In this document: positions 805 to 60,540 of the stretch, one piece after another
Numbering within the stretch: the first letter of the stretch is position 1
Layout: each line of letters opens with the position of its first letter
Source: Carallia brachiata
Taxonomy: Eukaryota; Streptophyta; Magnoliopsida; Malpighiales; Rhizophoraceae
NCBI GenBank assembly: GCA_021464245.1
Contig: JADCRB010000016.1
Location: 3,651,250 to 3,715,249, forward strand
Reading direction: 5' to 3'
Length of the DNA: 64,000 bases
The notes under the pieces: model-generated
What the model saw: only the letters and a program-made list of their open reading frames with translations
What the model was told of the DNA's origin: nothing
The model's database searches: none
Position numbers and translations under genes: made by a program

Positions 805-1580
805 ATGAAACTAGTTGTAAAATGTCAAGATAAGGAAGAGCATAGGTCACCACGCATTAGATGGCAACCAAGTCCAATGCAACTGCAAATCTTGGAGGAG
901 TACTTTCGCAGCAATGAAGATACTTGTCCCAGCTTATCACAGCTCTCCCAACTTACTTCACGAATGCGGCCGTACAGAGCAGTCAAAACAAAAAAAATGT
1001 GTATTTATGGTTCCAAAACCGAAGAAACAGGGAGAGAGCAGCACAAAGTTGTTGTTTCTGAAGCACAGTCTACCATCACAGCTGTTCTTGCGGTAGATCT
1101 CACGAGTATGGCGTCGTCCTCAAATTAGCCAGGTCCAAACTCCACCGCTGCAATGATCCCTCAAGGCTATTTCAACCAAAACTGTAGCCTATGGGACTAC
1201 ACATACTATTCCTAGTGGTTTTATGGAGTCAACAAGTGGTTCATCCTTTACTGGAACTTCAGTCTAGGAGGAAACTTTGCACCAAGAGGGAGCTGCTCCA
1301 GTGAAACTCTACCTCTCTTTCTGGTATACTCCAGTGACGTCAACCAGTAGGAAAGTTCCAGTAGTGTCAACGTCACCGGTCTGCAAAGCAAAGACACAAT
1401 TGACTTGGAGCGGCGTCTCGGGCCCCATAAGGCCGGACAACAAGGATATAGTGCAACAACTTTTTGCAATGCACAGTATTCACTTGTGTGACACGCCTCA
1501 ACCGCAGCCTCATTTGTCTCGTATTGTAAAAAGAAATGTGGAAGAGGTCCACACCAGATTCTGCATATCTCATTTCTGAC
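805..1580 (+). pseudogene. WUSCHEL-like homeobox pseudogene, copy 1
   Basis: Reads from an ATG at 805 into a homeodomain: residues 19-45 include RW-x-P-S-P and QLQILEEYF, followed by LSQLSQLTSRM and RPY. An expanded run of A at 990-997 shifts the frame, and helix 3 continues in the next frame from 999 as VYLWFQNRRNRERAAQ. Further on, 1306-1329 reads TLPLFLVY, matching the WUS-box of WUS-clade WOX repressors, and in the same frame 1405-1419 reads LERRL, the place of the C-terminal EAR-like motif; one TAG lies between. WUS-clade proteins are stem-cell transcription factors; this copy cannot make one. It sits between the TATA minisatellite and the retroelement 3' module. Family assignment comes from motif order; no search was run. 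Confidence 0.75.
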
Positions 1581-2280
1581 TTCGAAAAAATAATCAAGAA
1601 AAGGTGGCAGTTTTTGTTGTGTATATATTTCTTGCGTTCTTAAGTCGCACAGCTCACCCCTCAACTCTTCTTTCTCTCTGAAGAAAGAATATGGCTAGTG
1701 CTTGTGTTCTCCTTTTTAGGAAATTCTTTAATCAAGAAGCTGAAGACACAAGAATCAGAAAGAGAAAGAGTCATTCGCTTCGAAACTCTCTAATCTCGAC
1801 CTCTAACGTCATCTTGTTCGATGAAGTTTCAACCACTCTCCTTAGTGCACATCTATCACAACGAGCTGAAAAATTGTGACCATCCTCATTTGTTCTCAGA
1901 TTCGGCAACAGACGGAAAAGTTGCAACTACTCTCCTTACATCACGACATACAGGAAAGTCATCACTATAGCCCGTCTCTCTGTGAGTTGGCCTTGTTATG
2001 CCATGGTGTTGGGCCTTCATTATTGGAAGGATCAAGCTCTCTACCTACTGCATCATCCTCACCAAAATCATTGGACTTCAATTTCTATATTGGCTGGAAG
2101 GCTAACATCCTAAAGGTCGTATCGGTTCTTATGGAAGCTGGACAGCAGCTGGGCCAATCGGAGTTAAAGACCTTAAGATCAATGTTCATCAAGATGTCTC
2201 AAGCTTCAAACTGGACTTCAAGATTTGGTTCTAATCATGTCCCAAGATCCTTTCTGACCAAGCCTTGAAGTGGGGCCATT
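1581..2280 (+). other. Retroelement 3' internal module with PPT, copy 1
   Basis: This module follows the homeobox segment and ends in the polypurine tract (about 2263-2278, here TTGAAGTGGGGCCA) just before the LTR. It carries a short basic ORF and then about 400 bp that is open in different frames in different copies, ending in the conserved reading HQALKWGHL-stop elsewhere. I recognise no domain. Confidence 0.7.
1691..1879 (+). CDS. Short basic ORF, 62 codons, unknown
   Basis: ATG-initiated ORF reading MASACVLLFRKFFNQEAE and then a basic cluster RIRKRKSHS. The same peptide recurs in other copies (intact at 10680-10811 on the - strand; damaged at 23180, 33880, 37790, 41930, 46390, 54180 and 60590), always about 100-120 bp after the homeobox segment. 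Repetition through copies of one element does not by itself prove selection. No family is recognised; the basic cluster could be a nuclear-localisation or nucleic-acid-binding stretch. Confidence 0.3.
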   Translation: MASACVLLFRKFFNQEAEDTRIRKRKSHSLRNSLISTSNVILFDEVSTTLLSAHLSQRAEKL

Positions 2281-3115
2281 TGAAAACTCAAAAAAAAAAA
2301 AAAAAAAAAGAAGAGTCAAGAGCCAACATCTAGAAGGAGGAAAACGAAAAAAAATCAGAGTCAAGATCCATCATCTAAAAGAGAGGGAAAAAATCAACAA
2401 AAAATTGGTGGCACAGTACTACACAGTGTCTCCTCCCAACCTACAAATAGGCGCAAAATCTCCAACGGCCAATCAAACCATAGAAACATAGGAGGCACAA
2501 CAAAATTCAAGGGGCGAAAGTTTTGTTTAAAACTTTTCCCTTATGTTTTCGTATTTTAAGCATACGCTGCCCAAATTCATATTCCATATATAAGGCCGAA
2601 AATATTTAATATACTCAATTCCATAAATATATTGGGTATATACTTTCCGGTCGCCTCAAATTGGGATTTACGAGAATAAAAATCTAAAATATTAAAATAT
2701 TAAACATATGTCTGGGATTAAGCTCTTACGGCTCTCAGTAGAGTCAGCCCACAGGAGAACAAGTCCTTACGGCCGCTAGTCGAATTAAACCAGTCCGAGT
2801 GGGATCAAGCCCTAGCCCTCAGTAAAGTAAAACTAGTCCATATAAGATCAAGCTTATACGGCCCTCACCGGAGTTCTAGCATCTACCTAAGATCAAACCT
2901 CACCCCTTAGTGGAATTTGTTTCCTACAGTTAAAGAGCACGGTGTGGAAATTCATTCTCTTTCAGTCAAAATCAAGCCTTTGCAGTCCTTGACGAAATCA
3001 CACAAGAGAATTAATCGGAGGATTGCACAGAGATCGACCCCACATAAATTTTAAATTTTTACTTGTAATTTGTATCTGTATTTTTTGAGTCTAACTATTG
3101 CCGGCTCGAAACATA
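2281..3115 (+). mobile_element. LTR, subtype I
   Basis: Begins TGAAAACTC just after the PPT. A-rich start, then the direct repeat around AGTCAAGA-GCC-ACATCTAGAAG that marks subtype I, a degraded promoter box (CCTACAAATAGG, about 2440), the ATTAAAATATTAAACAT segment, five or six degenerate GGCCCTCAG/TGAGATCAAGCC repeats and the end CTCGAAACATAC. The last bases (CCCTCACA) are scrambled. Confidence 0.85.
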
Positions 3116-3504
3116 CCCTCCCCCCATAGTTTTTTGAATTTTTACTCTTGTAGATTCCAATCTGAGTTAACCAGAGAGTATATACCTAAAAGGTCCTATG
3201 TCGACTATTAAAATAGAGAATCTGCAACTCACACAGCAATAAGATCTCTCACCTAACTCTCTGATTGAATAGAGAAGTCGACTATTCACTCTGACCGATG
3301 TTGGGGGCAAAGGGTCAAATCCTTACCAAGCCCCTCCATTCCAATCTTCCTAGCTGGGGAACAGTTTCCATCGAACAGCATCAAAAGCACCAATCTAGCG
3401 ATACGCTCGCTTCCGAATGGGACGAGTCATACCTGGTTCAAGAAGTCTACACTACTGATGCTTATATGCTGTCAAACCAAAAAGACAACTGAGCCAGTCC
3501 CTCA
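3116..3504. mobile_element. Junction: inverted LTR scrap and distal leader piece
   Basis: About 3130-3190 matches the middle of the LTR on the - strand (TTTTTACTCTTGTAGATTCC). From about 3206 to 3495 it matches the distal leader of the family on the + strand, including GAGAAGTCGACTATTCACTC and GTTGGGGGCAAAGGGTCAAA. No gene. Confidence 0.6.
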
Positions 3505-7738: not shown

Positions 7739-7912
7739 GCACACCTAGTGGCGTGACCCAGCTTGAGTATAAACTGTCAACGGTACTAGAAAACCAGGAC
7801 TCAATCCAAAACTCCTCGTGTGCTGTGAGGTTGGCCGACAAGGATAAGGTGCAACAATTTTTGCAGCACACGATATTGACTTTTACAACACACTTTAGCC
7901 ACTACTTCATTT
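7739..7912 (+). pseudogene. Primer-binding site joined to WUS-like 3' fragment
   Basis: ATTTTTGGCACACCTAGTGG (primer-binding site) runs at about 7757 into the TATAAACTGTCAAC leader of the homeobox unit and then, after an internal deletion, its C-terminal codons and tail (GGCCGACAAGGATAAGGTGC). The homeodomain is absent. Joined directly to a gag 3' part. Confidence 0.55.
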
Positions 7913-8254
7913 GGGCATATCCATTCCCTGACTCTGACGTTCTAGGCATTCTCGATCAACTTTTGGAAGCTAAGCTGATCATGCTCTTAGAATGCAAGCA
8001 ACCCAATGAAAAGGATCGGGTCAATGATTCAAAATTCTGTAGGCATCACCGCATAGTCAGCCATCCAACTAAGAAGTGTTTCATCCTAAAGGAGCTAAGC
8101 TTGAAGCTCATAATCAAAATAAAATCATTTTGGACTAGGAAGACGTAATCTCAACCAACCAGACCACTGTCTCTTTGAATCTGTTGAGGAAAGTCAACAT
8201 GAATCTATGCTTATGCGCTATCAGATCAAAGATGCATCCTGACTTGGCTTGATT
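7913..8254 (+). pseudogene. gag C-terminal fragment
   Basis: Open for most of its length: YPFPDSDVLGILDQLLEAKL, then FCRHHRIVSHPTKKCFILKE, a cysteine/histidine pattern typical of plant gypsy gag C-termini. No gag N-terminus precedes it; it continues a homeobox fragment in the same ORF by chance. Confidence 0.75.
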
Positions 8255-9262: not shown

Positions 9263-9432
9263 AACGATCGTCACTCCTTATCCTTGTCGGTTGATATCAC
9301 GACTCGAGGCATAGTTCCACAAAAGTTGTTGTACCCTAGCTTTGTCGGTCGACCTTATTGGTGGCCTAGTGGGGCCAGAGACATAGCTCCAAGTCAATTG
9401 TGTCTTCGCTTGGCAGATTGGTGGCGTTATTA
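9263..9432 (-). pseudogene. WUS-like 3' fragment, inverted
   Basis: On the - strand the segment reads EDTIDLELCL at about 9410-9382, the EAR-like end of the homeobox protein, followed by its downstream tail, partly duplicated. The homeodomain and WUS-box are absent. Confidence 0.6.
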
Positions 9433-10184: not shown

Positions 10185-10509
10185 ACTTACTTCACTTGTC
10201 CTAACTTATCACAGCTCTCCCAACTTACTTCACGATTACAATTGTACAGAGTAGTCGAAACAAAAAAATGTGTATTTATGGTTCCAGAATTAGAGAAAGA
10301 GGGAGAGAGCAGCACAAAGAGTTGTCGTATTTGAAGCACAGTCTACCATCACAACTGTTCCTATGGTAGATCTCACTAGCATGGCGTCATCCACAAATGA
10401 GGTAGGTCCAAACTCCACAACTACAATGGTCCCTCAAGGCTGTTTCAACAAAAACTCTAGTCTGTGGGACTATACATACTGGTCCTAATGGTTTTATGGA
10501 GTCAACATG
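10185..10509 (+). pseudogene. WUS-like homeobox pseudogene, 5'-truncated
   Basis: Starts inside helix 1-2 and keeps LSQLSQLTS and, in a second frame, VYLWFQN then SMASSTNEVGP. The A-run before helix 3 has 7 As where 6 would keep the frame. Ends at about 10508 before the WUS-box, at a join to an inverted 3' module. Confidence 0.65.
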
Positions 10510-20243: not shown

Positions 20244-20503
20244 TGAAGTTCTAACAGACCCCTGAGATCAAACCTCAGTCCTTAGTGGAATTTATTTCCA
20301 TCAGTTCAAGAGCAAATTGTGGACATTCAACCTCTTTCAGTCAAGATCAAGCCTTTGCAGCTGTTGACGAAATCAAACATGAGCATTAATTGGAGGATCA
20401 CATAGAGATTGACCCCACATAAATTTTAAAATTTCACTTGTAATTTGTATCTATATTTTTTGAGTCTAACGGTTGTAGGCTTGAAACACACCGGTCCCTC
20501 ACA
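20244..20503 (+). mobile_element. LTR 3' fragment
   Basis: Last quarter of an LTR, from GAAGTTCTAACAGACCCCTG to CGGTCCCTCACA. It provides the 5' boundary of the gag-carrying unit that follows. Confidence 0.85.
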
Positions 20504-20602
20504 ATTTTTGGCATGCCTAGTTGGACCTCCCTGCCTTCCATATTTTTCTCCTTAAAACAAAAAAATTTTCAACAGGAATTCAACACCAACATTGTCGTAG
20601 TC
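20504..20602 (+). other. Primer-binding site and gag leader
   Basis: ATTTTTGGCATGCCTAGTTGG, then the short leader CCTTCCATATTTTTCTCC and an A run, with the start of gag about 100 bp after the LTR. Confidence 0.8.
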
Positions 20603-22020
20603 ATGATGACAAGCACAACCAATACGGAAGGCAAGATTGCAGAATTGGAAAACAAAATTTTCCAGTTGGTGAAAGCTTTGGAAGAGAAGGATCAAGAAAT
20701 TGCCAATCTCAAAGAAAAGGCTCCAATATAGGTTAATCCTGAGACTAGTGGGGAGCAGCCATGTCTGCCTAGTTTCACTCCAGAAGCAACTCCAGCCAAC
20801 TTTTTTCTCGCTGAAAAACAACAAAGCAGTCTCGCACAGTTACCGCCTTAAAAGTTCTATCGCTTCATTATCTGTCTAGCAATTAGAGGCCATGATGACG
20901 AATATAGTTCGTCTACAACAAAGTGCACCATTTTCAAGTTCACAAATATACATCAAACTATACACGAGACTGATTGAAAACCTTTAGCATGCCCTTCGAC
21001 TATCAGTCGCCCAAGTTTCAACAATTCGATGGCCGAGGTGATCCAAAGTAGTACATTGTTCACTTCGTCGAAACCTGCAACAATGCTGAAACTTACAGTG
21101 ACCTTTTGGTAATACAGTTTATTCGTTCACTCAAGGACACCGCCTTCACCTAGTTCATAAACCTTGAACTAGAATCAATTGACAGTTTGGAACAGTTGCA
21201 ACGCGAGTTTCTCCACAGATTTTTCAGCACTTGTAAAATAGTGAGCATGATGGAGCTCACCAAAGCCAAGCAAAGGAAAGGAGAGTCTGTTATTGATTAC
21301 CTAAACAGATGGTGTGCTCTTAATCTCGACTGCAAGGATCATTTGATGGAGATTTCCGCTGTAGAAATGTGCATTCAAGGGATGCACTAGGAGCTGTTAT
21401 ACATCTTGAAGGGTATCAAACCTCGAACTTTCGAGGAACTGATGACTTGTGCGCATGAATTGGAGATAAGCATCAAGACTTCTGGGGGCACGATTCCCGT
21501 CCAATTAGACTGGGACGAGGGCCAATAAGGGATGGTCGTTGACACTCCACTAATAAAAGTTGGAGCTAACGTAAACGTGAGCCCTCTAGTGCTAACAATT
21601 CAATCGAAACACCAAGAAAAGGGAAAGGCGATGTTGCGAGAGTTGGAACAAAAAAGTATTCATTCCCTGACTCTGACGTTCTAGGTATTCTCCATCAATG
21701 TTTGGAAGCTAAGTTGACCATACTCCTAGAATGCAAGCAACCGAATTAGAAGGATCAGGTCAATGATATGAAATTATCCAAGTATCACCGCATAGTTAGC
21801 CATCCAACCAAGAAGTGTTTCGTCCTAAATGAGCTGATCTTGAAGCTCATAGTCCAAAATAAAATCATTTTGGACTGGAAAGACGTAGCCTTAACCAACC
21901 AGACCACCGTCTCTTCGAATCTGTCAGAGGAAAGTCGGAATGAATCTACACTTACACGCTGTCATATCAGAGATGCATCCCGACCTAGCTCGATGAAGCG
22001 GTAAGTTTCTAAAGTATTGT
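20603..22020 (+). pseudogene. Retrotransposon gag pseudogene, copy 2 (full span)
   Basis: The longest gag copy. MMTSTTNTEGKIAELENKIF, a coiled coil, runs to a TAG at 20729. The central domain is readable in the next pieces: SPKFQQFDG-like codons, [53 protein letters not shown] and PRTFEEL. The C-terminus has HRIVSHPTKKCFVLNELILK and DASRPSSMK. At least five stops (for example TAG for TGG in FT-W-F) and several frameshifts. No protease or reverse transcriptase follows; the A-rich tract begins at once. Confidence 0.85.
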
Positions 22021-26903: not shown

Positions 26904-27083
26904 ATGAAACTAGTTGCGGAACCTCTAGACAAGGGAGAGGATAGGTCACCATGCATTAGATGGCGGCCAAGTCCAATGCAACTACAAATCTTGGAGGAGT
27001 ACTTCCGCAACAATGAAGGTACCTGTCCAATCTTATCACAACTCTCCCAACTTACTCCACAACCACGGCCGTACGGAGTAGTT
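26904..27083 (+). pseudogene. WUS-like homeobox, N-terminal half only
   Basis: ATG at 26904, in frame through RWRPSPMQLQILEEYFRNNE, LSQLSQLT and RPYG, with no stop. At about 27081 it fuses to the 3' module (CTGCATCATCCTCACC), losing helix 3, the WUS-box and the EAR-like end. This is the best-kept N-terminal half in the window. Confidence 0.75.
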
Positions 27084-28195: not shown

Positions 28196-28252
28196 AATTT
28201 TTTAACCTCGCAAGAGTATAAAAGGCGATAACTCAACTACAACTCAACTCCT
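28196..28252 (+). repeat. Single minisatellite unit between two LTRs
   Basis: AACCTCGCAAGAGTATAAAA and one linker, left by a deletion that removed the rest of an internal region. Confidence 0.75.
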
Positions 28253-28642
28253 AGAGTTAGTCCACCTGAGAACAAGCCCCTATGGCCCTCAGTGGAGTTA
28301 AACCAGCCTGAGTGGGATCAAGTCGTAGACTTCAGTGGAGTCAAATTAGTCCATATGGGATTAAGCTCATACGACCCTTATCGGAGTTCCAGTAGTTCTC
28401 TGAGATCTAGCCTTGGCCCTCAGTTGAATTTGTTTCCATCAGTTCAAGACCAAGCTATGAAAATTCAATCTCTTTCAGTCAAGATCAATCCTTTGCGGCC
28501 CCTGACGAAATCACATAGGAGCATTAACTAGAGGATCACAGAGAGATCGACCCCGCTTAAATTTTAAATTTTCACTTGTAATTTGTATCTGTATTTTTCG
28601 AGTCTAACTGTTGTAGGTTGGAAACATACTGTCCCCTCAAAA
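28253..28642 (+). mobile_element. LTR 3' fragment
   Basis: From GAGTTAGTCCACCTGAGAAC to CTGTCCCCTCAAA. Confidence 0.85.
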
Positions 28643-28744
28643 TTTTTGGTACGTCTAGTGGGACCTCTTTGCCTTCCATCTTTTGCTTCTCAAAAAAACA
28701 AAAAAAATCAGTAGGAATTCAACATCAACATCGTCGTAGTCAGG
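28643..28744 (+). other. Primer-binding site and gag leader
   Basis: ATTTTTGGTACGTCTAGTGG followed by CCTTCCATCTTTTGCTTC, parallel to 20504-20602. Confidence 0.78.
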
Positions 28745-30130
28745 ATGACAACCACAACCAACGCAGAAGGCAAGATCGTAGAATTGGAAAATAAATTTTC
28801 CAGTTGATGAAAGCTTTAGAAGAAAATGATCAAGAAATTGCCAATCTCAAAGAAAAGGCTCGATACAGATTGATCCTGAGACCATTGGGGAACAGCCATA
28901 TCTATTTGGTTTCGCTGCAGAAGCAACTCCAGCCAACATTTTCCTAGCTGAAAAACAATAAGGTGGTCCCGCATAGCTACCGCTTTCAAGTTTTATTGCT
29001 TCATTATCTGTCCAACAATTACAGTACATGATAACAAATACAGTCTGTCTACAACAAAGTGCACCATTTTCTGGTTCAAAAATGTACATCAAACCGTACA
29101 CGAGACGGGTTGAAAACCTCGAGATGCCCTTGGGCTACCAGCTACCCAAGTTTCAATAATTCGATGGACGAGGTGATCCAAAGCAACACATAGCTCACTT
29201 CGTCAAAACCTGTTACAATGTAGGAACTTATGGTGACCTTTTGGTGAAACAGTTTGTTTGTTCACTCAAGGACACTGCCTTCACCTGGTTCATAAACCTT
29301 GAACCAGAATCAATTGACAGTTGGGAACTGTTGCAATGCGAGTTTCTCAACAGATTTTTTAGCACTCATCAAATAGTGAGCATGATGGTGCTCATAAGAT
29401 CCAAGCAAAGGAAATGAGAGTCTGTCATCAAACACATAAACATATTACGTGCTCTCATTCTTGATTGCAAGGATCATCTGATGAAGACTTCCACAGTAGA
29501 AATGTGCATTCAAGGTATGCACTGGGAGCTGTTATACATCTTGCAAGGTATCAAACCTCGAACTTTTGAGGAAGTGGCGCCTTGTGCACATGATATGGAG
29601 ATAAGTATCAAAACTTTTAGGGGCACAGTTCCGATCCAATTGGACCAGGACGGGGGACAGGAAGTGATGGTCATTGATACTCCACCAATAAAAGTAGGAG
29701 CTAACGCAAAAGTGAGCCCTCCAGTGGTAACAATTCAATCGAAACAACAAGAAGAGTGAAAGGGGACGTTGCGAGTGTTGGAACAGAAGAAGTATCCATT
29801 CCCTGACTCTGACGTTCCAAGCATTCTCGATCAACTTTTGGATGCTAAGCTAATCATGCTCCTAGAATGCAAGCTACCAAATCAAAAGGATCAAATCAAT
29901 GATTCGAAATTCTGTAGGTATCACCGCACATTTGGCCATGCAACCAAAAAGTGTTTCGTCATAAAGGAGCTGATCTTGAAGTTCATAGTCAGAAACAAAA
30001 TTATTTTGGACTGGGAAGATGTAGCCTCAGCCAACCAGACCACTGTCTCTTCGAATCAATAGGAGGAAAGTCGGCATGAATATATGCTTACAAGCTATAA
30101 GATCAGAGATGCATCCTGACCTAGCTTGAT
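28745..30130 (+). pseudogene. Retrotransposon gag pseudogene, copy 3 (full span)
   Basis: ATG at 28745 (the first of the two usual ATGs is AGG here). A one-base loss in the ENK-F run near 28795 shifts frame at once. Later pieces: FTWFINLEPESIDSWE, then ORF 29481-29759 with [20 protein letters not shown], and ORF 29769-30062 with YPFPDSDVPSILDQLLD and FCRYHRTFGHATKKCFVIKE. The frame is thus retained over long C-terminal stretches although the N-terminal third is broken. Confidence 0.85.
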
Positions 30131-32992: not shown

Positions 32993-33772
32993 GATAGAAC
33001 TAGTTGCAGAACCTCAGGACAAGGGAGAGGATAGGTCACCAAGAATTAGATGGCGACCAAGTCCAATGCAATTGCAAATCTTGGAGGAGTACTTCCACAA
33101 CAATGAAGGTACTTGTCCTAGCTAATCACAGCTCTCCCAACTTACTTCACGACTGTGGCCGTACGAAGCAGTCGAAAAAAAAAAGTGTATTTTTTGTTTC
33201 CGAACAGGAGAAACAGAAAGACTGTAGAACAAAGAGGTGTTGTTTCTGAGGCACAGTCTGCCATCACAACTGTTCCTGTGGTAGATCTCACCAGTATGGC
33301 GTCGTCCTCAAATTAGGCGGCTCCAAACTCCACCACTGTAATGATCCCTGAAGGCTGTTTCAACCAAAACTGTAACTTGTGGGAATACACATACTGGTCA
33401 TTGTGGTTTTGTGGAGTCAACTAGGGGTTCATCCCTTATAGGAACTTCAGTCTAGGAGGAAACTTCGCACCAAGAGGGAGCCACTTCGGCGAAACTCTAC
33501 TCTGTTTCCGGTACACCCCAGTGACGTCAACTAGAAGGAGAGTCCAAGTAGTGTCAACATCACCAGTCTGCCAAGCAAACACGCAATTGACTTCGAGCAA
33601 CGTCTCGGGCCCCACAAGGCCGGCCAACAAGGATAAGATTCAACAAATTTTTGCAGCTCACGGTATTGACTTGTGCGACACGCTTCGACCGCTTCCTCGT
33701 TTGTCTTGTACGGCAGAAAGAAACGTGAAGGAAGGCCCCACTAGATTATGCATATCTCCTTTTTGACTTTGA
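32993..33772 (+). pseudogene. WUS-like homeobox pseudogene, copy with canonical WUS-box
   Basis: Start codon mutated to ATA. Frame through RWRPSPMQLQILEEYFHNNE, one TAA in helix 2, then LSQLTSRL. Helix 3 shifts at a run of 10 A and is changed (VYFLFPNRRNRK). At 33494-33516 the codons spell TLPLFPVH apart from one missing C, the best WUS-box here. In the following frame come SDVN, SSVN and DFEQRLGPHKAGQQG-stop, the EAR-like end. Order and spacing match copy 1. Confidence 0.78.
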
Positions 33773-34165
33773 AAAAAAATCAAAAAAGAGGGAGGCAGCT
33801 TTTATTGTGAATATATTTCCTCCGTCTTCAAGTCACAGAACTCACCCCTCAGCTTTCTTTCTCTACGAAGAAAAAATTTGGCTAGTCTCTATGTTCTATT
33901 TTTTATGAAATTCTTTAATCAAAAAGCTGCAGACACAAGAATTAGAAAGAGAAAGAGTCATTCGCTTCGAAACTCTCAAATCTCAGCCTCTGACGCCATC
34001 TTTGTCAATGAATTTCCAACCACTCTGCTTAATTCACATCTATCACAATGAGCTGAAAAGTTGTGACCATCCTCATATGTTCTCAAATGCAGTGACTGAT
34101 GGGGAAGTTTCAATTGCTCTCCTTACGTCACAACATACGGAAGAGTCATCGCTACAGCCCGTCTC
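33773..34165 (+). other. 3' module, truncated
   Basis: Carries the short basic ORF in damaged form (ATG changed to TTG at about 33879) and the VPTTLL region; no PPT, because an LTR fragment cuts in at 34166. Confidence 0.65.
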
Positions 34166-34636: not shown

Positions 34637-35102
34637 AATTTTTGGCACATCTGGTAAGGCATCTCTACCTCCCATCTTTGACACTAAGACAACGCTCGAG
34701 CAAAAAAAAGGGATAGGAATCCGCACATCACTGGCATAAGACCGCGTCCATCGGCAAATAGACGACTGTTCTATTGCCTACATCAACTACTTTACTTGGG
34801 TATGCAGGTCCACAAATTTGGGTACGGACACAGTTTTTCACCACTCAAAAAATTTAAAATAGAGAATCTACAGCTCACACAGTCGTAAGATCTCTCACCC
34901 AACTCTCTCACTAAATGGAGAAGTCGACTAGTCACTTCGATCGAAGTTGGGGAAAACAAGTCAAATCCTTACCAAGCCCCTCCACTCCAGTCTTTTCAGC
35001 TGGGGCATAGTTTCCATCCAATAGGACCAAAAGCACCAATCTAGCAACAGGCTCGCTTCCAAATGGGACAAGTCATACCTAGTTCAAGAAGTCTACACCA
35101 CA
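34637..35102 (+). other. Primer-binding site and leader
   Basis: ATTTTTGGCACATCTGGTAA, then a shortened leader without the palindrome; distal part ends GTTCAAGAAGTCTACACCAC, as at 3460. Confidence 0.7.
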
Positions 35103-37235: not shown

Positions 37236-37900
37236 AATGACCCCACTTCAAGCCTTGGTGAGGAAGGATCTTGGGACGTGATCCGAACCGAGTCTTGAAG
37301 TCTAGTTTAAAGCTTGAGATGCGTTGATGAACATTGAATCTTGAGGTCTTTAACTCTGGCTAGCCTAGCTGTTGTCGAGCTTCCATAGTTCACAAAGGTT
37401 ATTTCATGGAACTTGAAGTTCCACGGCTTAGGTGAGGATGATGCAGCATGCAAAGAACTTGAACCTTCCTGGAATGAGGAAGGCCCAGCATTATGGCACA
37501 ACAAGGCCAACTCACAGAGAGATAGGCTATAGTGATGACTCTCCCATATGTCGTGATGTAAAGAGAGTAGTTGGAACTTCCCTGTCCGTCGCCGCATGTG
37601 AAAATGGATGAGGATGGTCACAACGTTTCGGCTCATTATGATAGATGTGAACTAAGGAGAGTGGTTAGAACTTCATTGGCCAAGATGGTGTCAGAGGTTG
37701 AGATTCGAGAGTTTCGAAGCAAACAACTCTTTCTCTTTCTAATTCTTGTGTCTGCAGCTTCTTGATTAAAGAATTTCTTGTAAAAGAAAGTGTAAGGATT
37801 AGCCATTTTCTTTCTTCAGAGAGTAAGGAGAGTGCTGAGGGGTGAGTTCTGTGATCTGACCAGACAAAAAATATATACACAAGAAAAGCTGCCCTTTTTT
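37236..37900 (-). other. 3' module with PPT
   Basis: PPT plus-strand form TGACCCCACTTCAA at 37238-37251. The short basic ORF is frameshifted (ATGGCTAATCC start at 37806, minus strand). ORF 37307-37636 covers the second half: KPWNFKFHEITFVNYGSS. Confidence 0.7.
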
Positions 37901-38700
37901 TTCAAAGTCAAAATAGAGATATACAAAATCTAGTGGGGTCTTCCTTCACGTTTCTTTCAACCATACGAGGCAAACAAGGCATCGGTCAAGGCATGTCGCA
38001 CAAGTCAATATCGTTCGCTGAAAAAAGTCATTGCACCTTATCCTTGTCTACTCGCCTAGTGGGGCCCAAGATGCAGCTCCAAGTCAATCATGTCCTCATT
38101 TGGAGTGTCGATGACATTGACACTACTGGAACTCTACTACTGGTTGATGATGCCAGACTGTATTGGAAAGAGAGGTAAAGTTTTGCCGGAGCGGCTCCCT
38201 CATAGTGCGAAGTTTCTTTCTGGACTGAAATTCCTGTAAGGGATGAATCCCTGGTTAACTTAATAAAACCACCAAGACTAGCATGTGTAGTCTCACAGGC
38301 TATAGTTTTGGTTGAAATAGCCTTGAGGGATCATTGCAGTGGTGGAGTTTGGACCTGCCTCATTTGAGGACGACGCCATACTGGTGAGGTCTACCACAGG
38401 AAAACTTGTGATGGTAGATTGTGCTTCAGAAACAGCAGCTTTTTGTCTGCTTTCTCCCTATTTCTCTGGTTCTGTAACTAAAAATACACATTGTTTGTTT
38501 AGACTGCTCCATATGGGCGCAGTCGTGAAGTAAGTTGGGAGAGTTGTGATAAGCTAAGACAAGTACCTTCATTGTTACGGAAGTACTCCTTCAAGATTTA
38601 CAGTTGCATTGGACTTGGTCGCAATCTAATTTATGGTGACCTATCTTATCCTTTGTCCTGAGGTTCTGCAACTAGTTACATCTTTCTCACTGAAAGGATG
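37901..38700 (-). pseudogene. WUS-like homeobox pseudogene, frame kept through helix 3
   Basis: ATG at 38681. One frame runs through the whole homeodomain with no indel but with several stops: SPMQL, EYFRNNEGTCLSLSQLSQLT, RLRPYGAV, then TNNVYF-stop-LQNQRNRE. The WUS-box at 38181-38158 reads TLPLFPIQ and, exactly 99 bp on in the same frame, 38082-38068 reads LELHL followed by GPH-stop, the EAR-like end; a double TAG lies between. Damage is mostly single-base substitution. Confidence 0.8.
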
Positions 38701-38880: not shown

Positions 38881-39355
38881 TATGCTTTGACTGTTAAGTC
38901 GTCGTCTTTTATACTCGTGCGAGGTAGGAGTGTGTTGTTATTGAACTGTCACCTTTTATACTCCTGCGAGGAAGGAGTGTGTTGCTGATCTATTCATCTT
39001 TATACTTGTGTGAGACAAGAGTGTGATTTTGTGTTGTGTTGTCCCTTTTATCCTCGTGCAAGGTGGGAGTCTGTTGTGCTAAGCTATTCGCCTTTTATAC
39101 TCATGTGAGGCAGGAGTCTGCTTCAGTTGATCACCTTTTGCACTCTTGCGAGGTAGGAGTCTGTTGTTGAATTGTTGCTTTTTATACTCATGGGAAGTAG
39201 GAGTCTAGTATTGAACTGTGTTGTCGCCTTTTATGCTAGTGCAAGGTAGAAGTCTGCTTCTGTTGATCGCCTTTTATACTTGTGTGAGGCAGAAGCGTGA
39301 GTTGTCACCTTTTATACTCGTGCCAGGTCGGAGTTTGTTGTTGCGTTGTCAAGCT
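38881..39355 (-). repeat. TATA-box-like minisatellite array 8
   Basis: About eleven units; on the plus strand seen as CGCCTTTTATACTCGTGCGAG. Confidence 0.9.
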
Positions 39356-41767: not shown

Positions 41768-42493
41768 GCAAAAGGAAGAGACGTGACGTGCAACCCCACC
41801 AAATTCTACATATCTCTTTTTTGACTTTGAAAAATAAAAAGGTAGCTTTTGTCGTGTATATTTCTTACCTGCACAAATCACAGAACTCACCCCTCAGCAA
41901 TCTTCTTCCTCTTTGAAGAAAGAAAATGGCTAGTCCCTACACTTTCTTTTATAGGAAATTCTTTAATCAATAAGCTACAGACACAAGAGTTAGAAAGATA
42001 AAGAGTCATTCGCTTTGAAACTCTCAAATCTCAGCCGCTAACTCCATTTTGGTCGATGAAGTTCCAACCACTCTTCTTACTGCACATCTATCACAACGAG
42101 CCAAAAAGTTGTGATCATCCTCATTTGTTCTCAAATGCGGCGACGGATGGGAAAATGCTCACTACTTTACTTACATCACGACATACGGGAGAGTCATCAC
42201 TACATCCTGTCTCTCTATGAGTTGGCCTTATTGTGCCATGATGCTTGCCCTTCTTCATGGGAAAGTTTAAGTTCTTTGCCTTTTGCATCATCCTCATCTA
42301 AGCCATGCAACTTCAAGTTCCATAAAATAACCTTTGTGAGCTATGGAAGCTCGACAGTAGTGGGGCTGGCCAGAGTTAAAGATCTCAAGATTCAATGTTC
42401 ATAAAGATGTCTCAAGCATCATGCTGGACTTCAAGACTCGCTTCAGATCACGTCCCAAGATCCTTCCCTACCAAGCCTTGAACTGGGGGCATT
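41768..42493 (+). other. WUS-unit tail and 3' module with PPT
   Basis: 41768-41860 is the tail of a homeobox unit (ATTCTACATATCTCTTTTTT). The short basic ORF is broken (ATGGCTAGTCCCTACACTT at 41925). ORF 42111-42404 reads KPCNFKFHKITFVSYGSS. PPT is changed to TTGAACTGGGGGCA. Confidence 0.7.
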
Positions 42494-45048: not shown

Positions 45049-45844
45049 TTTTTGTATAAATTTTGAAATTTGTGTGGGGTCGATCTCTATTTGATCCTTC
45101 GATTAATGGTCCTTTTATATGTCGTCAAGGGTCACATAGGATTGATCTAGACTGAAAGAGATTGAATTTCCATAGCATACTCTTTAACTATAGGAAATAA
45201 ATTCCACTGAGGGCCAAAGCTTGATTTCAGGTGGATGCTGAAACTCCGGTGAGGGCCGTATGGGCTTGATCTCAGATGGACTGGTTTGACTCCACTGAGG
45301 GCCGAGGCTTGATCCCACTCGAACTAGCTTAGCTTCGCTAAGGGCCGTGGGGGCCTAATCTCAGATGGACTAGCTTTGCTGATGGCCGTAAGAGGCTTAA
45401 TATTAGACAAATGTTTAATATTTTATTATTTTGAATTTTTACTCTCACAGATCCCAATCTAAGGCAATCAAAGAGTATATACACAAAATATGTTTGGAAA
45501 TGAGTATATTAAATATTTTGGACCTTTACTCTGAAAGATTGCGCTTAATGGCATCCAAAGAGTATGCGCCCAAAATATGAAAACATATAGGTGAGGAAGT
45601 TTTGTTAAAGGATTTCACATATGCTTCCTCGAGATGCCCCAAATGGTTTGTTGCGAAGGCTATTTATAGGCCTTTTTGCAAAGCAATCAGACAAAGGCCA
45701 ATGGCCTTTTGTCAATTTTGGTTGGCAGCAAGTTGCTGCCAACCTTTCTAACTACTTTTTTTTTCTTCCAGTTATGGACCGACCCTTGGCTTTTTTTTTT
45801 TTTGTCTTTTGTCTTATGTTTTTTTGAATTTTTTAATGTTTACA
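45049..45844 (-). mobile_element. LTR, subtype III, with U3 palindromes
   Basis: TGTAAACATT at 45844. U3 differs from the others and has a perfect 25-bp palindrome at 45720-45744 (arms GGTTGGCAGCAA) and a second inverted pair GACAAAGGCC / GGCCTTTTGTC near 45690-45713. Box CTATTTATAGGCC at about 45659. The 3' part matches the common LTR. Confidence 0.85.
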
Positions 45845-46490
45845 AATGCCCCCACTTCATGGCTTTGTGATAAAGCAGCTTGGGACGTGATTCGAGCTGA
45901 GTCTCGAAGTTCAGCTTGAAACTTGAGACGTCTTGAAGAATATTGAATGTTGAAGTCTTTAATTCTAATTAACCCGGCTGATGTCGATCTTCCATAGCTC
46001 ACAAAGGCTATTTTATGGAACTTGAAGCCCGTGGTTTAGTTGCGATGGTCTAGTAGACAAAGAATCTGAGCTTCCCCATGGAGAAGGCTAAGTACCATGG
46101 AACTTCAAGGCCAGTGCATAAAGAGATGGGTTGTAGTTATGATTCCTCTGTATGTCGTGATGTAAGGAGAGTAGTTGGAACTTCTCTATTCATCGCCGCA
46201 TTTGAGAACTGATGAGGATGGTCACAAGTTTTCAGCTCGTGGTGATAGATATGAACTAAGAAGAGTGGTTGGAACTTCATCGACCAAGATGGCGTAAGGT
46301 TGAGATTCGAGAGCTTTGAAGCGAACAACTCTTTCTCTCTTTTTTGTTTGTGTCTGCAGCTCTTGGATTAAAGAATTTCTTGAAAAAGAGAACACGGGGA
46401 CTAGCCATATTTTTTCTTCAGAGAGAAATAAGAGTTGACGGGTGAGTTATGTGACTTAAAGACGCAAGAAATTATAAACACAATAAAATT
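45845..46490 (-). other. 3' module with PPT
   Basis: PPT seen as CCCCCACTTCATGG on the plus strand. Short basic ORF damaged. Confidence 0.7.
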
Positions 46491-47278
46491 TGCCCCCTTT
46501 CTATTGATTTTTTTTAATGTAAAAGTCAAAAAGAGGATATGCTAGATCAGGTGGGGTCCTCCTTAACGTTCCTTTTTGTCATAAGTGACAAAAGAGGCAA
46601 TGGCTGATGCGTGTTGAAAAAGTTGTTGCACCTTATCCTTGTCGGCTAACTTCACGGGGCTTGAGGCATAGCCCCAAGTCAATTACATCCTCTTTTGGTG
46701 GGCCGATGACGTTGACACTACTCAAACTTTCCTGTTAATTGACATTGGCGGGATGTACTAGAAAGAGAGGTCGAGCTTCACCAGAGCGACTTCCTCCTAA
46801 TGCAAGGTTTCCTCTCGGATTGAAGTACCCGAAAGGGATGAATTCCTTACTGACTCCATAAAACCACCATGACCAATACATGTAGCCCCACAGGCTATAG
46901 CTTTGGTTGAACTAGCCTTGAGGGACCATTGCAGTGTTGGAGCTCGGACTTACCTTATTTGAGGCCGATGCCATAATGGTGAGATTTATCACAGGGAACA
47001 GCTGCAATGGTAGACTATGCTTCAGAAACAGCAGCTCTTTGTGCAGCTCTCTCCCTATTTCTGTGGTTCTAGAACCAGAATACACACTTTTTTGTTTCGA
47101 CTGCTCCGTACTGCCGCAGTCATGAAGCAAGTTGGGAGAGTTGTGATAAGCTAGGGCAAGAACCTTCATTGTTCCGGAAGTACACCTCCAAGATTTGTAG
47201 TTGCATTAGACTTGGTCGCCATCTAATGCGTGGTGACCTACCCTCTCCCTTGTCCTAAGGTTCTGCAACTAGTTCCAT
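46491..47278 (-). pseudogene. WUS-like homeobox pseudogene, best-kept homeodomain
   Basis: ATG at 47278. A single frame crosses the homeodomain (47224-47036, residues 19-81) without any indel: RWRPSLMQLQ, ILEVYFRNNEGSCPSLSQL, LRQYGAVETKKCVFWF, stop, NHRNRERAAQR. Stops at residues 8, 53 and 70 are TAG, TGA and TAG where other copies have CAG, CGA and CAG, i.e. C-to-T changes. Helix 3 (VFWF-x-NHRNRER) is close to the WFQNHKARER signature of WOX proteins, and the FRNNEG loop has the extra residue of WUS itself. Downstream: RPLFLVHPANV (WUS-box, worn) and DLGLCLKP near the C-terminus, then GRQG-type end and stop. Confidence 0.82.
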
Positions 47279-47500: not shown

Positions 47501-48065
47501 TGTCGTTTTGCCTTTTATACTCGTGCAAGGCAAGATTTTGGATTTGCAGTCGAACTATTCGTCTTTTATACTCGTGCAAGGTAGGAGTTTGTTGTTTCCT
47601 GCTGAGCTATTCGCATTTTATACTCATGTGAGGCAAGAGTTTAGATTTTGGTCATTGCCTTTCATACTCGTGCGAGGTAGAAGTGTGAATTTGGGTTGTT
47701 GCCTTTTATACGCGTGTGAGACAGGAGTTTGGATTTGCTAATAAGCTATTCACCTTTTATATTCTTGCGATAAAGGAGTCTATTGTTGAGTCGTTGCCTT
47801 TTATACTCGTGCGAGGTAGGAGTCTACTTCAATTGATCACCTTTTATACTCGTGCGAGGCTAGAGTGCACTTTTGTGGGTCATGTTTTATAGTCATGCGA
47901 GGTAGAAGTCTGGATTTGCTGTGTTATCACCTTTTATACTCATTCAATGCGGGAGTGTTGAGCTGTTCGCCTTTTATACTCGTGCGAGGTAAGAGTTAGA
48001 ATTTGTTGGGTTGTCGCCTTTTATACTCGTGTGAGGCATGAGTCTGTCGTTGGGTTGTTGAGCTA
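47501..48065 (-). repeat. TATA-box-like minisatellite array 10
   Basis: About thirteen units. ORF 47385-47741 across it is a by-product. Confidence 0.9.
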
Positions 48066-49061: not shown

Positions 49062-49940
49062 TGTGAGGAACCTGTATGTTTCAAGTCTTGATAGTTAGGT
49101 TTCAAAAATACATATACAAATTGAAAGTGAAAATTTAAAATTTATGTGGTTTGATCTCTGGGTAGATACTCCGATTAATACTCCTGTGTGATTTGTCAAG
49201 AGCTACGAAGGCTTGATCTTGATCGAAAGAGGTTTAATTTTTACAATCTAATTCTTGAACTGAGGAAGTAGATTCCATTGAGGGCCGAGGCTTGATCTCA
49301 AGTGGATGTTGAAACTCTGGTAAGGGCCGTATAGGTTTGATCTCAGATGGACTGGTTTGACTCCACTGAGGGCCGAGGTTTGATCCCACTCGGACTAGTT
49401 TAGCTCCACTAAGAGCCGTAGGGGCATGTTTTTAGGTGGACTAGCTATGCTGGGGGCTGTAAGAGGCTTAATCTCAAATAGATGTTTAATATTTTAATAT
49501 TATAGATTTTTACTCTCGCAAATCCCAATTTGAGGCGAACGTAGAGTATAAACCCAAAAAATGTATGGAAATGAATATATTAAAAATTTTGGACTTTTAC
49601 TCTAGATGATCGCACTTAACTGCGTTTAGAGAGTATAAGCCTAAAATACGAAAATGTATAAGAGAGAAAATGTGGAATTGTTTTGCAATTGGTTTTTGCA
49701 AGCTTTCCTCTCGCCCCCTCGGTGTGTTGGGCTGTTGTTTTTTTTTTTTTTGCTCTGCCTGCTTTTGCTGCTAAGTTTGGGGATGCCTCCATTACCTATT
49801 TATAAGCTCCCAGCAAGCTTTTTCTTTTGTTTTTTTTTTAATAATATGATCTTGTATTTCTTTGGCTGGCCAAAGAAATTAGTCTTTGGCCAGCTACCGA
49901 CCAAAGACTTCACTTTTTCTTTTTTTTTAAAAAAAAAAGA
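49062..49940 (-). mobile_element. LTR, subtype II variant
   Basis: Has the subtype II hairpin arms (CTTTGGCTGGCCAAAG at about 49860) and an extra AGCTTGCAAAAACCAATTGC segment shared only with 62605-63317. Box CTATTTATAAGC at about 49796. Confidence 0.85.
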
Positions 49941-51750: not shown

Positions 51751-52369
51751 ATGCTTTTTATGTTTACTGACTAATTAGACCGGTCTAGATGACCTTTTGG
51801 TTTGACAGCATGTAAGCATCGTCGGTATAGACTTCTTGAACTAGGTATGTCCCGTTCCATATGGAAGCAAGCCTATTGCTAGATTGGTGCTTTTGATCCT
51901 GTTGGATGGAAACTATGCCTCAGTTGGGAAGACTGGAGTGGAGGGGCTTAGTAAAGATTTGACTCGTTGCCCCCAACTTTGGTCGGAGTGAAAAGTTGAC
52001 TTCTCCATTCAGTGTGAGAGTTGGGTGAGAGATCTTACTGCTGTGTGAGCTACAAATTCTCTATTTTAATTTTTTTTGAGTGGCCAAAAACCGTGTCCAT
52101 ACTCAAATTTGTGGACCTGCATACCCAAGTAAGGTAGTTGAGGTAGGCAATGGAACAATCGTCTATTTGCTGGCGAAGGCGGTCTTATGCTAGTGATGCG
52201 TCAGATTCCTGTCCCTTTTTTTTTTTGTCCCGGTGTTGTGTTGGTGTTGGCCATTTCATGGCCTATAGGCAATGAAATGACCACTGTGCCACCAACCTCT
52301 TTTTTTTTAAAAAAAAAAAGGAGCAAAAGATGGAAAGTAGAGATGCCCCATTGGGCATGCCAAAAATTA
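51751..52369 (-). other. Leader with worn palindrome and primer-binding site
   Basis: The distal part matches 3206-3495 (GACTTCTTGAACTAGGTATG on the plus strand), the GGACTGGAGTGGAGGGGCTT-type piece follows, and a 26-bp palindrome with one arm damaged lies at 52253-52278. Confidence 0.72.
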
Positions 52370-53618: not shown

Positions 53619-54280
53619 AATGCCCCCCACTTCAAGGCTTGGTGAGGCAGAACTTTAAGACGCGATTTGAACCAAGTCTTGAAGTTCAGTTTGAAACTTG
53701 AATGTCTTGATGAACATTGACTGTTGAAGTCTTTATCTCTGATTAGCCCGACTGATGTTGAGCTTCCATAACTCGTAAAGGATATTTTATGGAACTTGAA
53801 ATCCATGGTTTAGGTGAGGATGATCCAATCAACAAAGAACTTGAACCTCCCCATGGTGAAGGTTCAGTACCACGAACCTTCAAGGCCAACACATAGAGAG
53901 GCAGACCGTAATGATGATTCCTCTATACGTAGTGACGTAAGGAGAGTAGTTGGAACTTTCCCATCTGTCACCGTATTTGAGAACAGATGATGATGATCAC
54001 AACTTTTCTGCTTGCTGTGATAGTTGTGAACTAAGGAGAGTGGTTGAAACTTCATCGACCATGATGGCATTTGAGGTCACGATTTGAGGATCCCTTGAAG
54101 AGAACGATTCTTTTTCTTTCTAACTTTTGTGTCTATAGCTTTCTGATTAAAGGATTTCCTGAAAAAAAGAACACAGGGACTAGCCATCTTCTTTCTTTAG
54201 AGAGAAAAAACAACTAAAGAATAAGTTTTGTGACTTGAAAATGCAGGAAATATGTACACAATAAAAAGTTGCTTTTTTTT
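53619..54280 (-). other. 3' module with PPT
   Basis: PPT as CCCCCCACTTCAAGG on the plus strand. Contains damaged basic ORF and the VPTTLL region (ORF 53864-54070). Confidence 0.7.
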
Positions 54281-54540
54281 TCTTCAGATTTTTTTATGCA
54301 AAAGTCAAAAAGAGGATATGCCGAATTAGATAGGAGTCCTCCTTCATGTCTCTTCCTGCCACAATGGACAAACGAGGTTGTGGTTGATGCGTATCACACA
54401 AGTCAAGGCAATAATGCGTGCCGTAAAAGTCGTTGCACCTTAACCTTGTCGGCCAACCTTGTGGGGCCCGAGGCATAGCTCTAAGTAATTGCATCCTGGG
54501 TTGATGACGTCGACACTACCGTGGACTGGGTTATGATTTT
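54281..54540 (-). pseudogene. WUS-like 3' fragment
   Basis: - strand: LELCLGPHKVGRQG-stop at about 54483-54442, the clearest EAR-like C-terminus, then the downstream tail. The homeodomain and WUS-box are deleted. Confidence 0.7.
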
Positions 54541-54664: not shown

Positions 54665-55312
54665 TTCGCCTTTTATACTCGTGCGAGGCAGGAGTCTACT
54701 TTTGTTAATCGCATTTTATTCCGGTGCAAGGCAGGAGTCTGGATTTGCTGTGTTATCGCCTTTTATACTCATGCAATGCGGGAGTGTTGAATTGTTTGCC
54801 TTTTATACTTGTGTGAGGCAAGAGTCCAAATTTGTTGTGTTGTCACCCTTTATACTTCTGCGAAGCCGTAGTCTGTCTTGGGTTGTTGAGCTACTATCTG
54901 GGCTTTGAGTTAGTGTTTAGGGTTTGCCCCCAAGTTTGGATTTGGACTTTAGATTTGGGTGTTGGTTTGGGGTTTGCCCTTGAATTTGGATTTGTACTTT
55001 AGGCCGAAATTTGGGTTTGGATTTTGAGGATTTGGATTTAGGTTTTGAGCTCGGATTTGATCCCGAGTTTAGATTTGAGCTTTATATTTGAGTCCGAGTT
55101 TGGGGTCTACTCCCGAACCTGGATTTGTACTATAGTCTAGAATTTATGTTTGGGATTTGAACCTGAGTTAGGATTTGTTAGGTTTTGGGGTCTGCCCCCA
55201 AATCTGTATTTGAACTTTCAGCAGGAATTTGGATTTGGACTTTGAGCCTGAGTTTGGATTTGCGTTTCGGGCTTTAGATTTGGGTTTTGGTTTGAAGTTT
55301 GGATGGGAACCG
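54665..55312 (-). repeat. Minisatellite array 12 and CCAAATCC array
   Basis: Five TATA-like units (54665-54896), then the array (54897-55312). Confidence 0.85.
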
Positions 55313-60290: not shown

Positions 60291-60540
60291 GCATGAGTAT
60301 AAACTATGAACGGCACTAAAAAAATCAGGACTAAGTCTAGAACTCCTCGAGCCCTGTAAGGTCAACCGACAAGGATAAGGAACAACAACTTTTATAGCAC
60401 AGGACATTTATTTTTACAACACGCGTTAGCCACCACTTCGTTTGTCCCTTATGACAGAAATGGACGTAAAGGAGGGCCCCACTTGATCTAACATATCCTC
60501 TTTTGGACTTTTGCAAAAAAAAAAAAGAAAGAAACATCTG
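60291..60540 (+). pseudogene. WUS-like unit with homeodomain and WUS-box deleted
   Basis: The leader (ACTATGAACGGCACTAAAA) passes straight into the C-terminal codons and tail (GTCAACCGACAAGGATAAGG). Same deletion type as 7739-7912. Confidence 0.6.

What the first reader, a model, noticed from the sequence alone, without database searches (positions are those of the whole stretch)
46491..47278. WUSCHEL-like homeobox gene captured and amplified by an LTR retrotransposon family
Seen: about a dozen copies or fragments (805, 7757, 9263, 10185, 26904, 32993, 38681-, 47278-, 54540-, 57583, 60291) all lie between the TATA minisatellite and the retroelement 3' module. Copies share RW-x-P-S, QLQILE, a helix 3 of WF-x-N[HR]RNRER, a WUS-box and a terminal LELRL-type motif. 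Known: homeodomain, WUS-box TLPLFP and EAR-like motif in this order define WUS-clade WOX proteins. Inference: a WUS-like transcript was transduced by a retroelement and spread. I know of no described element of this kind.
Basis: partly seen in the sequence, partly recalled or inferred. Interest (0 to 1): 0.92.

Follow-up and report, generated by a model that had tools for sequence, protein, structure and literature searches.

The report
Retrotransposon carrying a WUSCHEL stem-cell gene
A plant jumping element has picked up a copy of WUSCHEL, the plant's stem-cell control gene, keeps it readable in many places in this genome, and so may carry its own version of a master developmental switch.

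Summary
The window has four near full-length and several partial copies of a WUSCHEL-type homeobox ORF inside units of one LTR element family. Window copies are old and broken, and pol is lost but for remnants. The rest of this 337.5 Mb genome shows an intact form: a Ty3/gypsy element with RT, two RNase H domains and integrase (Tat lineage), with a 207-codon sense ORF between pol and the 3' LTR: homeodomain, TLPLFP, terminal LELxL, stop. 80 of 150 scored homeodomain hits share its signature (hand count); 30 of 30 fetched are this ORF, 22 in frame throughout. Seven of nine elements with both ends seen have perfect 5-bp target duplications; LTR divergence is 0.2-2.3% in six. Host WUSCHEL genes have introns between homeodomain and WUS-box; the ORF has none, so it came from spliced RNA. 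Silent sites are saturated against host WUSCHEL, so capture is old; dN/dS between subfamilies is 0.37-0.51. The homeodomain tree does not resolve the WOX donor; two published WUS-only traits favour WUS. Expression and function are untested. Ten full-text searches listed no such element.

The parts
805..1609 (+). WUS-like ORF copy c1 (3 stops and indels at a poly-A run), homeodomain to stop region
32994..33797 (+). WUS-like ORF copy c2 (4 stops, indels)
46491..47278 (-). WUS-like ORF copy c3, the finding itself (6 stops, two nearby indels that restore the frame)
37897..38681 (-). WUS-like ORF copy c4 (13 stops); keeps TLPLFP and LELHL
26904..27082 (+). WUS-like copy c5, N-terminal part; internal deletion into the 3' module
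10195..10504 (+). WUS-like copy c6, middle part, between an LTR end and an inverted 3' module
54279..54519 (-). WUS-like copy c7, C-terminal part (homeodomain deleted)
60345..60534 (+). WUS-like copy c8, C-terminal part (homeodomain deleted)
7825..7913 (+). WUS-like fragment
9276..9428 (-). WUS-like fragments, antisense
41794..41834 (+). WUS-like C-terminal fragment next to a 3' module
47702..48026 (-). TATA minisatellite upstream of copy c3 (other arrays 53-538 +, 25982-26682 +, 32330-32713 +, 38952-39317 -, 54669-54808 -, 59812-60245 +)
45850..46488 (-). 3' module between WUS ORF and polypurine tract (others 1610-2277 +, 33800-34167 +, 37241-37887 -, 41847-42488 +, 53625-54267 -)
45058..45845 (-). 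3' LTR of the c3 unit, beginning TGTAAACATT after polypurine tract AAGTGGGGGCATT; truncated at its end
49074..49599 (-). LTR 5' of the c3 unit, followed by a TTTTGGTACGCC primer-binding-like site
2278..3134 (+). 3' LTR of the c1 unit (end inferred from LTR-end contexts)
28629..30128 (+). gag region (PF03732, 5.1e-9) of the unit that holds c2
20491..21990 (+). gag region (PF03732, 4.3e-6) of a unit that lacks the WUS ORF
51793..51872 (-). remnant of the 3' end of pol (others 3410-3484 +, 13450-13505 +, 35047-35102 +): no other similarity to the young element's pol was found

Best explanation
A Tat-lineage Ty3/gypsy LTR retrotransposon long ago took up a spliced host WUSCHEL-type mRNA, most likely by a template jump between co-packaged RNAs during reverse transcription, and has kept it as an extra sense-strand gene in the env position between pol and the 3' LTR. 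The family has split into subfamilies that carry the ORF. One is young, with many open ORFs. The window holds an older, pol-deleted, partly gag-bearing one, now decayed and partly arranged in LTR-sharing tandem arrays. The ORF most likely makes a short nuclear WUS-like protein: a homeodomain that still has the recognition helix, WUS-box and terminal EAR-like repressor motif, without most of the middle of WUS. It would act in shoot stem cells or germ-line precursors, by mimicking or competing with host WUS, in a way that favours the element (longer stem-cell state, or blunting of the WUS-linked antiviral programme). Shown: WUS-type homology, place in the element, integration with target duplications, recent copies, absence of the host introns, long retention. 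Inferred: the jump mechanism, expression, localisation, protein function. I put 0.9 on capture and spread, 0.6 on a selected protein function inside the element, and 0.35 on the stem-cell role in particular.
For: Homology: (open ORF PF00046 2.7e-12). WUS traits: 63-residue homeodomain segment like 113 of 113 WUS orthologues that match the pattern (of 120 hits), against 62 in STENOFOLIA and recalled WOX1-5; PMC2584047 section 7 gives as WUS-only the extra residue, terminal LELxL and the WUS intron structure, of which the ORF has the first two; 42 columns invariant with 16 WUS proteins, including IEGKNVFYWFQN, TLPLFP and E-L-x-L positions. Element: pol frame of one locus = RVT_1 5.5e-34, RT_RNaseH, RVT_3 6.4e-24, rve 3.9e-10. 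Integration: 7 of 9 perfect 5-bp target duplications, 14 of the 20 long loci examined; LTR K2P 0.0021-0.0225 in 6 of 6 pairs measured. Copies: 80 of 150 scored rows share the 49.4-49.6 bit, 183-bp, position 2-56 signature (hand count); 30 of 30 fetched from these are this ORF. Spliced origin: both host WUS genes show three homology blocks, homeodomain in the first and TLPLFP in the third. Age: element against host WUS homeodomain pS 0.80-0.85, pN 0.34. Selection: open against window copies dN/dS 0.37-0.51 over 190-199 codons; pooled 0.46 among 9 distinct full ORFs against 0.73 and 1.23 in shifted frames.
Against: No expression data. Selection evidence is moderate: among the window copies singletons fall 64/63/75 by codon position (neutral decay), and their own dN/dS of 0.19-0.67 overlaps shifted-frame values; outside the homeodomain young-copy dN/dS is 0.48-1.06; the homeodomain value 0.07-0.10 and the count of open ORFs are biased, because rows were ranked by homeodomain score and the first 20 were picked for a 229-aa open frame. 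The homeodomain tree does not place the ORF with WUS: the best-likelihood attachment is WOX13, the AU test keeps WOX13, WUS, WOX1, WOX2 and WOX3 and rejects only WOX5 and WOX4. Two of nine elements lack a target duplication. Exons of host WUS are homology blocks, not transcript-proven.
Confidence: 0.8

Rival explanations
1. Passenger: the WUS ORF was captured and multiplied but never did anything for the element; its openness only reflects recent bursts from a few source copies.
For: Six of six dated copies are recent, the first 20 copies were picked for openness, C-terminal dN/dS reaches 0.98-1.06 in 3 of 16 pairs, window copies decay neutrally.
Against: Two subfamilies whose homeodomains differ at 27 of 59 residues (window c3 against L009) both keep homeodomain, WUS-box and EAR motif in order (WUS-box and EAR best in window c4); silent sites against host WUS are saturated while pN is 0.34. 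A passenger over that span should have lost the frame.
Confidence: 0.3
2. The ORF entered as a WUS retrogene (LINE-made processed copy) that landed in an element, not by template switching.
For: The ORF lacks host introns, as a LINE-made retrogene would; a WUS-less unit exists (20241-24517).
Against: None direct: borders of the ORF were not examined for a poly-A tail or target duplication. Units c7 and c8 keep WUS C-terminal pieces, so short units look like deletions, not pre-capture forms.
Confidence: 0.2
3. The donor was another WOX gene (WOX1 or WOX3 type), not WUS.
For: Homeodomain identity of the open copy L009 is 34/62 to recalled WOX3, 32/62 to STENOFOLIA, 32/63 to host WUSa; AU does not reject these.
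Against: 63-residue homeodomain segment and terminal LELxL are WUS traits.
Confidence: 0.15
4. Host-side benefit: copies supply WUS-like proteins or small RNAs to the plant (domestication).
For: Many open ORFs.
Against: No single conserved low-copy locus was identified; copies sit in mobile elements with target duplications.
Confidence: 0.05

Closest known systems
Retand/Tat-lineage Ty3/gypsy elements with pol-3'LTR additional ORFs (PMC11963269 parts 1-3; PMC6317226 passages)
   Same: Two RNase H domains, long pol-3'LTR region, tandem repeats, additional ORF there, some families without gag.
   Different: Published extra ORFs with known domains are antisense (mostly TRP28); the survey says no sense ORF in that region encodes a known domain. 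Here it is sense and a WUS homeodomain; no TRP28 match in the antisense frames scanned.
Orchid Ogre-related Ty3/gypsy with an m6A demethylase (2-ODD) ORF (PMC9289625, passages read)
   Same: Tat-family element that acquired an extra ORF and kept it across subfamilies.
   Different: RNA demethylase instead of a developmental transcription factor.
Maize Bs1 and LTR-captured genes of rice and sorghum (PMC13317346 section 5; PMC7264820 part 1)
   Same: Host gene pieces inside an LTR element.
   Different: None of the segments in Bs1 had a full-length ORF; transduced ORFs are described as present in one or a few copies. Here a whole start-to-stop ORF is in many copies.
WUSCHEL / WOX proteins
   Same: Homeodomain with extra residue, TLPLFP, terminal LELxL.
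   Different: 207 codons, about half identity in the homeodomain, middle part not recognisably related, no introns, multicopy in an element.

Membership tests
WOX modern clade, WUS type | Homeodomain of WOX type | tested here: met
WOX modern clade, WUS type | WUS-box TLxLFP in the C-terminal part | tested here: met
   TLPLFP in 16 of 20 ORFs (L013 TLSLFP, L027 TLPLFL, L020 and L028 lost) and in window c4
WOX modern clade, WUS type | Extra homeodomain residue (63 against 62 in the compared segment) | tested here: met
   WOX1-5 lengths from recalled sequences, STENOFOLIA
WOX modern clade, WUS type | LELxL at the extreme C terminus | tested here: met
   LELHLGPR or LELRLGPR before the stop in 19 of 20; trait
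WOX modern clade, WUS type | Groups with WUS in a tree | tested here: inconclusive
   AU rejects none of 8 placements; best is WOX13, AU rejects only WOX5 and WOX4 of 7
WOX modern clade, WUS type | WUS intron-exon structure | tested here: not met
   ORF uninterrupted; host WUS genes have gaps between three homology blocks. Expected for a spliced copy, so this speaks to origin, not ancestry
Ty3/gypsy, Tat lineage | RT, RH, INT order with INT after RH, and a second RNase H (aRH) | tested here: met
   L009 pol: RVT_1 83-242, RT_RNaseH 334-435, RVT_3 487-606, rve 777-872; dual RH unique to Tat (PMC6317226 passage)
Ty3/gypsy, Tat lineage | RT-based phylogenetic place | not tested
   no reference RT set was used here
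LTR retrotransposon | LTR pair, primer-binding site, polypurine tract, target duplication | tested here: met
   (7 of 9 duplications); the tRNA of the primer site was not assigned
Retand lineage | Antisense TRP28 ORF in pol-3'LTR region | tested here: not met
   no Pfam match in three antisense frames of L009 7320-9032 or window 805-2279; only these were scanned; the survey found it in all but two of its clusters
Transduced host gene | Host gene with introns, element copy without | tested here: met
   the exact donor gene is not identified because silent sites are saturated

The most novel reading that the evidence does not exclude
A plant retroelement with its own stem-cell regulator: the element-encoded WUS-like protein is made in shoot meristem cells, binds WUS target sites and holds or reshapes the stem-cell state (or switches off the WUS-dependent antiviral programme), so that new insertions reach the germ line. 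It would be a plant counterpart of a retrovirus carrying a cell-fate oncogene, kept over a long evolutionary span.
Probability: 0.3. Interest if true: 0.97.

Novelty: new variant of a known kind. Interest (0 to 1): 0.87.

Why it matters
Plants set no germ line aside early; shoot stem cells kept by WUSCHEL give rise to gametes (general knowledge). An element carrying a WUS-like gene would have the most direct means known to me of acting on the cells through which it is inherited. It also gives a sense, env-position ORF with a known domain, which the Retand survey reports as absent in its set, and a testable case of a master transcription factor turned into a mobile gene. For annotation: WOX family counts in such genomes may be inflated by these copies.

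Tried and rejected
Chance similarity: rejected (for copies 1 and 4 only). Low-copy ancestral locus: rejected. Retrotransposition inside the window: no target duplication could be shown; of 9 LTR starts that align from their first base (2278, 10980-, 23729, 27324, 37238-, 41142-, 42491, 45845-, 56720-; an A-rich match at 22099 left out), 8 directly follow a 3'-module end, that is, LTR-sharing tandem arrays or 3' LTRs. Gag in the pol-bearing loci L009 and L024: no Pfam match between 5' LTR and pol. Donor tree from homeodomains: not resolved. First motif run failed on a wrong pattern. Host species: not identified; among the 120 WUS proteins held, the host genes score best with Theobroma, Canavalia, Abrus (WUSa) and Cephalotus, Nyssa (WUSb), so a eudicot, perhaps a rosid. 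Total copy number: the pattern count did not complete. No scan of the whole window for pol domains by profile was made; absence of pol there rests on comparison with the L009 pol.

Literature: 10 full-text searches listed no title or abstract start about a WOX or WUS ORF in an LTR element; some searches were aimed at that. The library lacks most subscription journals and the term searches cap the listing, so this is not proof. Papers seen: PMC11963269 parts 1-3 of 5; PMC7264820 part 1 of 3; PMC13317346 passages and section 5; PMC9289625, PMC10589665, PMC6317226, PMC8124563 passages; PMC2584047 passages and section 7; PMC6274733 passages and section 8; PMC3726574 term search with 0 hits; the rest listings only.

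Full report
WHAT WAS CLAIMED AND WHAT IS THERE. blastn with the 46491-47278 segment finds similarity at or beside all 11 coordinates given, with 57583 and 9263 weak, and one more at 41794. Aligned, copies c1 (805), c2 (32994), c3 (47278-) and c4 (38681-) span the ORF; c5 to c8 are parts. Reading needs one frame change at a poly-A run. In my reading the run is in frame in c4, shifted in c1, c2 and c6, and shifted but restored by a second indel in c3, so whether the last common ancestor of the window copies was intact at that run is open. Without any frame choice, 733-1125 + matches only STENOFOLIA and WUSCHEL in the PDB. With pieces read through and X at breaks, WUSCHEL 4.3e-12 and STENOFOLIA 7.9e-12 stand far above the next homeodomain at 0.7, and 4 of 4 rows match PF00046.

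THE UNITS IN THE WINDOW. Module mapping gives one repeated order: LTR, leader with a TTTTTGGCACGCC-like primer-binding site, in some units gag (PF03732, 5.1e-9 and 4.3e-6), C/A-rich repeats, TATA minisatellite, WUS-like ORF, 3' module, polypurine tract AAGTGGGGGCATT, LTR. Of seven 3' modules that start at their first bases, 6 have a WUS match directly upstream and the seventh (10890-) has 24 bases of the ORF end in the alignment. One gag-bearing unit (20241-24517) has none; c7 and c8 keep only the C-terminal part and look like deletions. LTR pairs differ by about 19-24%. Of 9 LTR starts that align from their first base, 8 follow a 3'-module end, so much of the window is LTR-sharing tandem array. 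The window copies are decayed: 3, 4, 6 and 13 stops (c1-c4), half of directed changes (118 of 236) are G>A or C>T, and singletons are spread evenly over codon positions (64, 63, 75).

THE GENOME. The window lies in a 337,529,591-base assembly of 164 contigs. A homeodomain search there scored 150 of 1347 candidates; by hand count 80 rows share one signature (183 bp, position 2-56, 49.4-49.6 bits). I fetched the 20 of these that showed a 229-aa open frame and 10 others, 30 of 80. All 30 hold the same ORF. In the first 20 the frame is open by choice; it runs to LELxLGPR in 19, one of which (L020) has a local shift that destroys the WUS-box and recovers, and L028 ends in another frame. Of the other 10, 4 reach the end and 6 are truncated or shifted. 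So 22 of 30 are in frame from start to stop without a detected shift. L031, L032, L033 and L036, from outside that band, are further, more distant copies.

ELEMENT ANATOMY. L009 has LTRs at 445-1372 and 9039-9979, a 1064-aa pol frame and the WUS ORF 7453-8073. Pol carries RT, RNase H, a second RNase H-like domain (RVT_3) and integrase; two RNase H domains mark the Tat lineage (PMC6317226 passage). No gag domain was found before pol in L009 or L024. Of 19 loci checked, 1 has pol in a single full frame, although all have the WUS homeodomain open; this contrast is biased because loci were chosen for the WUS frame. Ends were examined in 14 of the 20 long loci. Both ends were seen in 9; 7 have perfect 5-bp target duplications (L011, L012, L014, L018, L021, L022, L025), L009 and L024 do not; in 5 the 5' end was not found in the piece fetched. 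LTR K2P in the six measured elements is 0.0021-0.0225, or roughly 0.1-1.6 million years at recalled plant rates of 7e-9 to 1.3e-8. Against the window, the young element shares LTR end, leader, TATA repeats, WUS ORF and 3' module, while only parts of the last 140 or so bases of pol remain in the window in four small pieces: the window units are pol-deleted relatives of another subfamily.

WHICH WOX GENE. PMC2584047 section 7 lists as WUS-only, for Arabidopsis and rice WUS: terminal LELxL, an extra homeodomain residue, and the WUS intron structure; TLxLFP is common to the clade. The element has the first two and TLPLFP. In the compared segment 113 of 113 WUS orthologues with the pattern (of 120 hits) have 63 residues, the element copies 63, STENOFOLIA and recalled WOX1-5 62. 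Alignment of the open ORF with 16 WUS proteins leaves 42 invariant columns, among them IEGKNVFYWFQN and TLPLFP. Against this, the homeodomain tree leaves the attachment open: the best-likelihood placement is next to WOX13, and WUS, WOX1, WOX2 and WOX3 are not rejected (rejects none of 8). I conclude WUS-type with probability about 0.85, resting on the two traits.

CAPTURE FROM RNA, AND WHEN. The host has two WUS genes, each with homeodomain, middle piece and WUS-box in separate homology blocks. The element ORF runs from homeodomain to WUS-box without introns. Element and host homeodomains differ at 80-85% of silent sites and 34% of replacement sites, while the two host genes differ by dS 0.16. 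Capture is thus much older than the host duplication.

SELECTION. Open ORF against window copies: dN/dS 0.51, 0.38, 0.42, 0.37 (c1-c4; homeodomain 0.39, 0.34, 0.34, 0.46), with neutral decay of the window copies pushing the figure up. Nine distinct full ORFs pooled: 0.46 against 0.73 and 1.23 in shifted frames; variable sites 20, 10, 20 by codon position. Homeodomain values of 0.07-0.10 between two young types are biased by ranking on homeodomain score. Outside the homeodomain values range 0.48-1.06. Among window copies the true frame gives 0.19-0.67 and shifted frames 0.48-1.40. I read this as real but moderate constraint.

HOW IT MAY WORK. The ORF has the env position, where spliced messages are known in retroviruses and in barley Bagy2 (PMC7264820 part 1). 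A pyrimidine-rich tract and CAG precede the start in three of five window copies (c1, c3, c5), and TATA-like repeats lie upstream in the window units; both are leads only. The protein would keep helix 3 and two repressor motifs. WUS is reported to take part in keeping RNA viruses out of stem cells (PMC10589665 passage, citing Wu 2020). A mimic or competitor made by the element in those cells is the boldest reading that fits; no expression evidence exists here.

NOVELTY. The Retand survey says that no sense ORF in its pol-3'LTR regions has a known domain; the main text of the 2026 review of gene capture in plants has no mention of WUSCHEL, WOX, homeobox or homeodomain; the rice/sorghum capture paper has none either. 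Gene capture by LTR elements is known (Bs1, Rider, orchid demethylase), so this is a new variant of a known kind, of high interest because of which gene it is and how long and widely it is kept.

Noticed in passing
15001-17051 -: Decayed MuDR/FAR-like transposase (DBD_Tnp_Mut 1.1e-9, SWIM 1.9e-8), the other gene-like stretch I recognised in the window.
   Followed up: partly
20241-24517, 28252-34625; L009, L024: Gag-bearing units without pol in the window and pol-plus-WUS loci without a detectable gag elsewhere share LTR ends and leader: possibly two complementary partners.
   Followed up: partly
whole window: LTR-internal-LTR-internal tandem arrays: 8 of 9 LTR starts aligned from their first base follow a 3'-module end.
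   Followed up: partly
window minisatellites; L009 about 3103-3360: TATAAAAGGC minisatellite of about 44-50 bp units, an array of TATA-box-like sequences; before pol in L009, next to the WUS ORF in pol-deleted units.
   Followed up: no
46491-47278 -, poly-A run of the homeodomain: Copy c3 has two opposite indels close together that restore the frame.
   Followed up: no
G000 C90 (L034, L051) and C65 (L035, L052): Two host WUSCHEL paralogues, homeodomain dS 0.16.
   Followed up: yes
L009, L011, L053, L060: At least two young ORF types (GGIMPNA..RADF and GGIIPSA..RTAF) coexist.
   Followed up: partly
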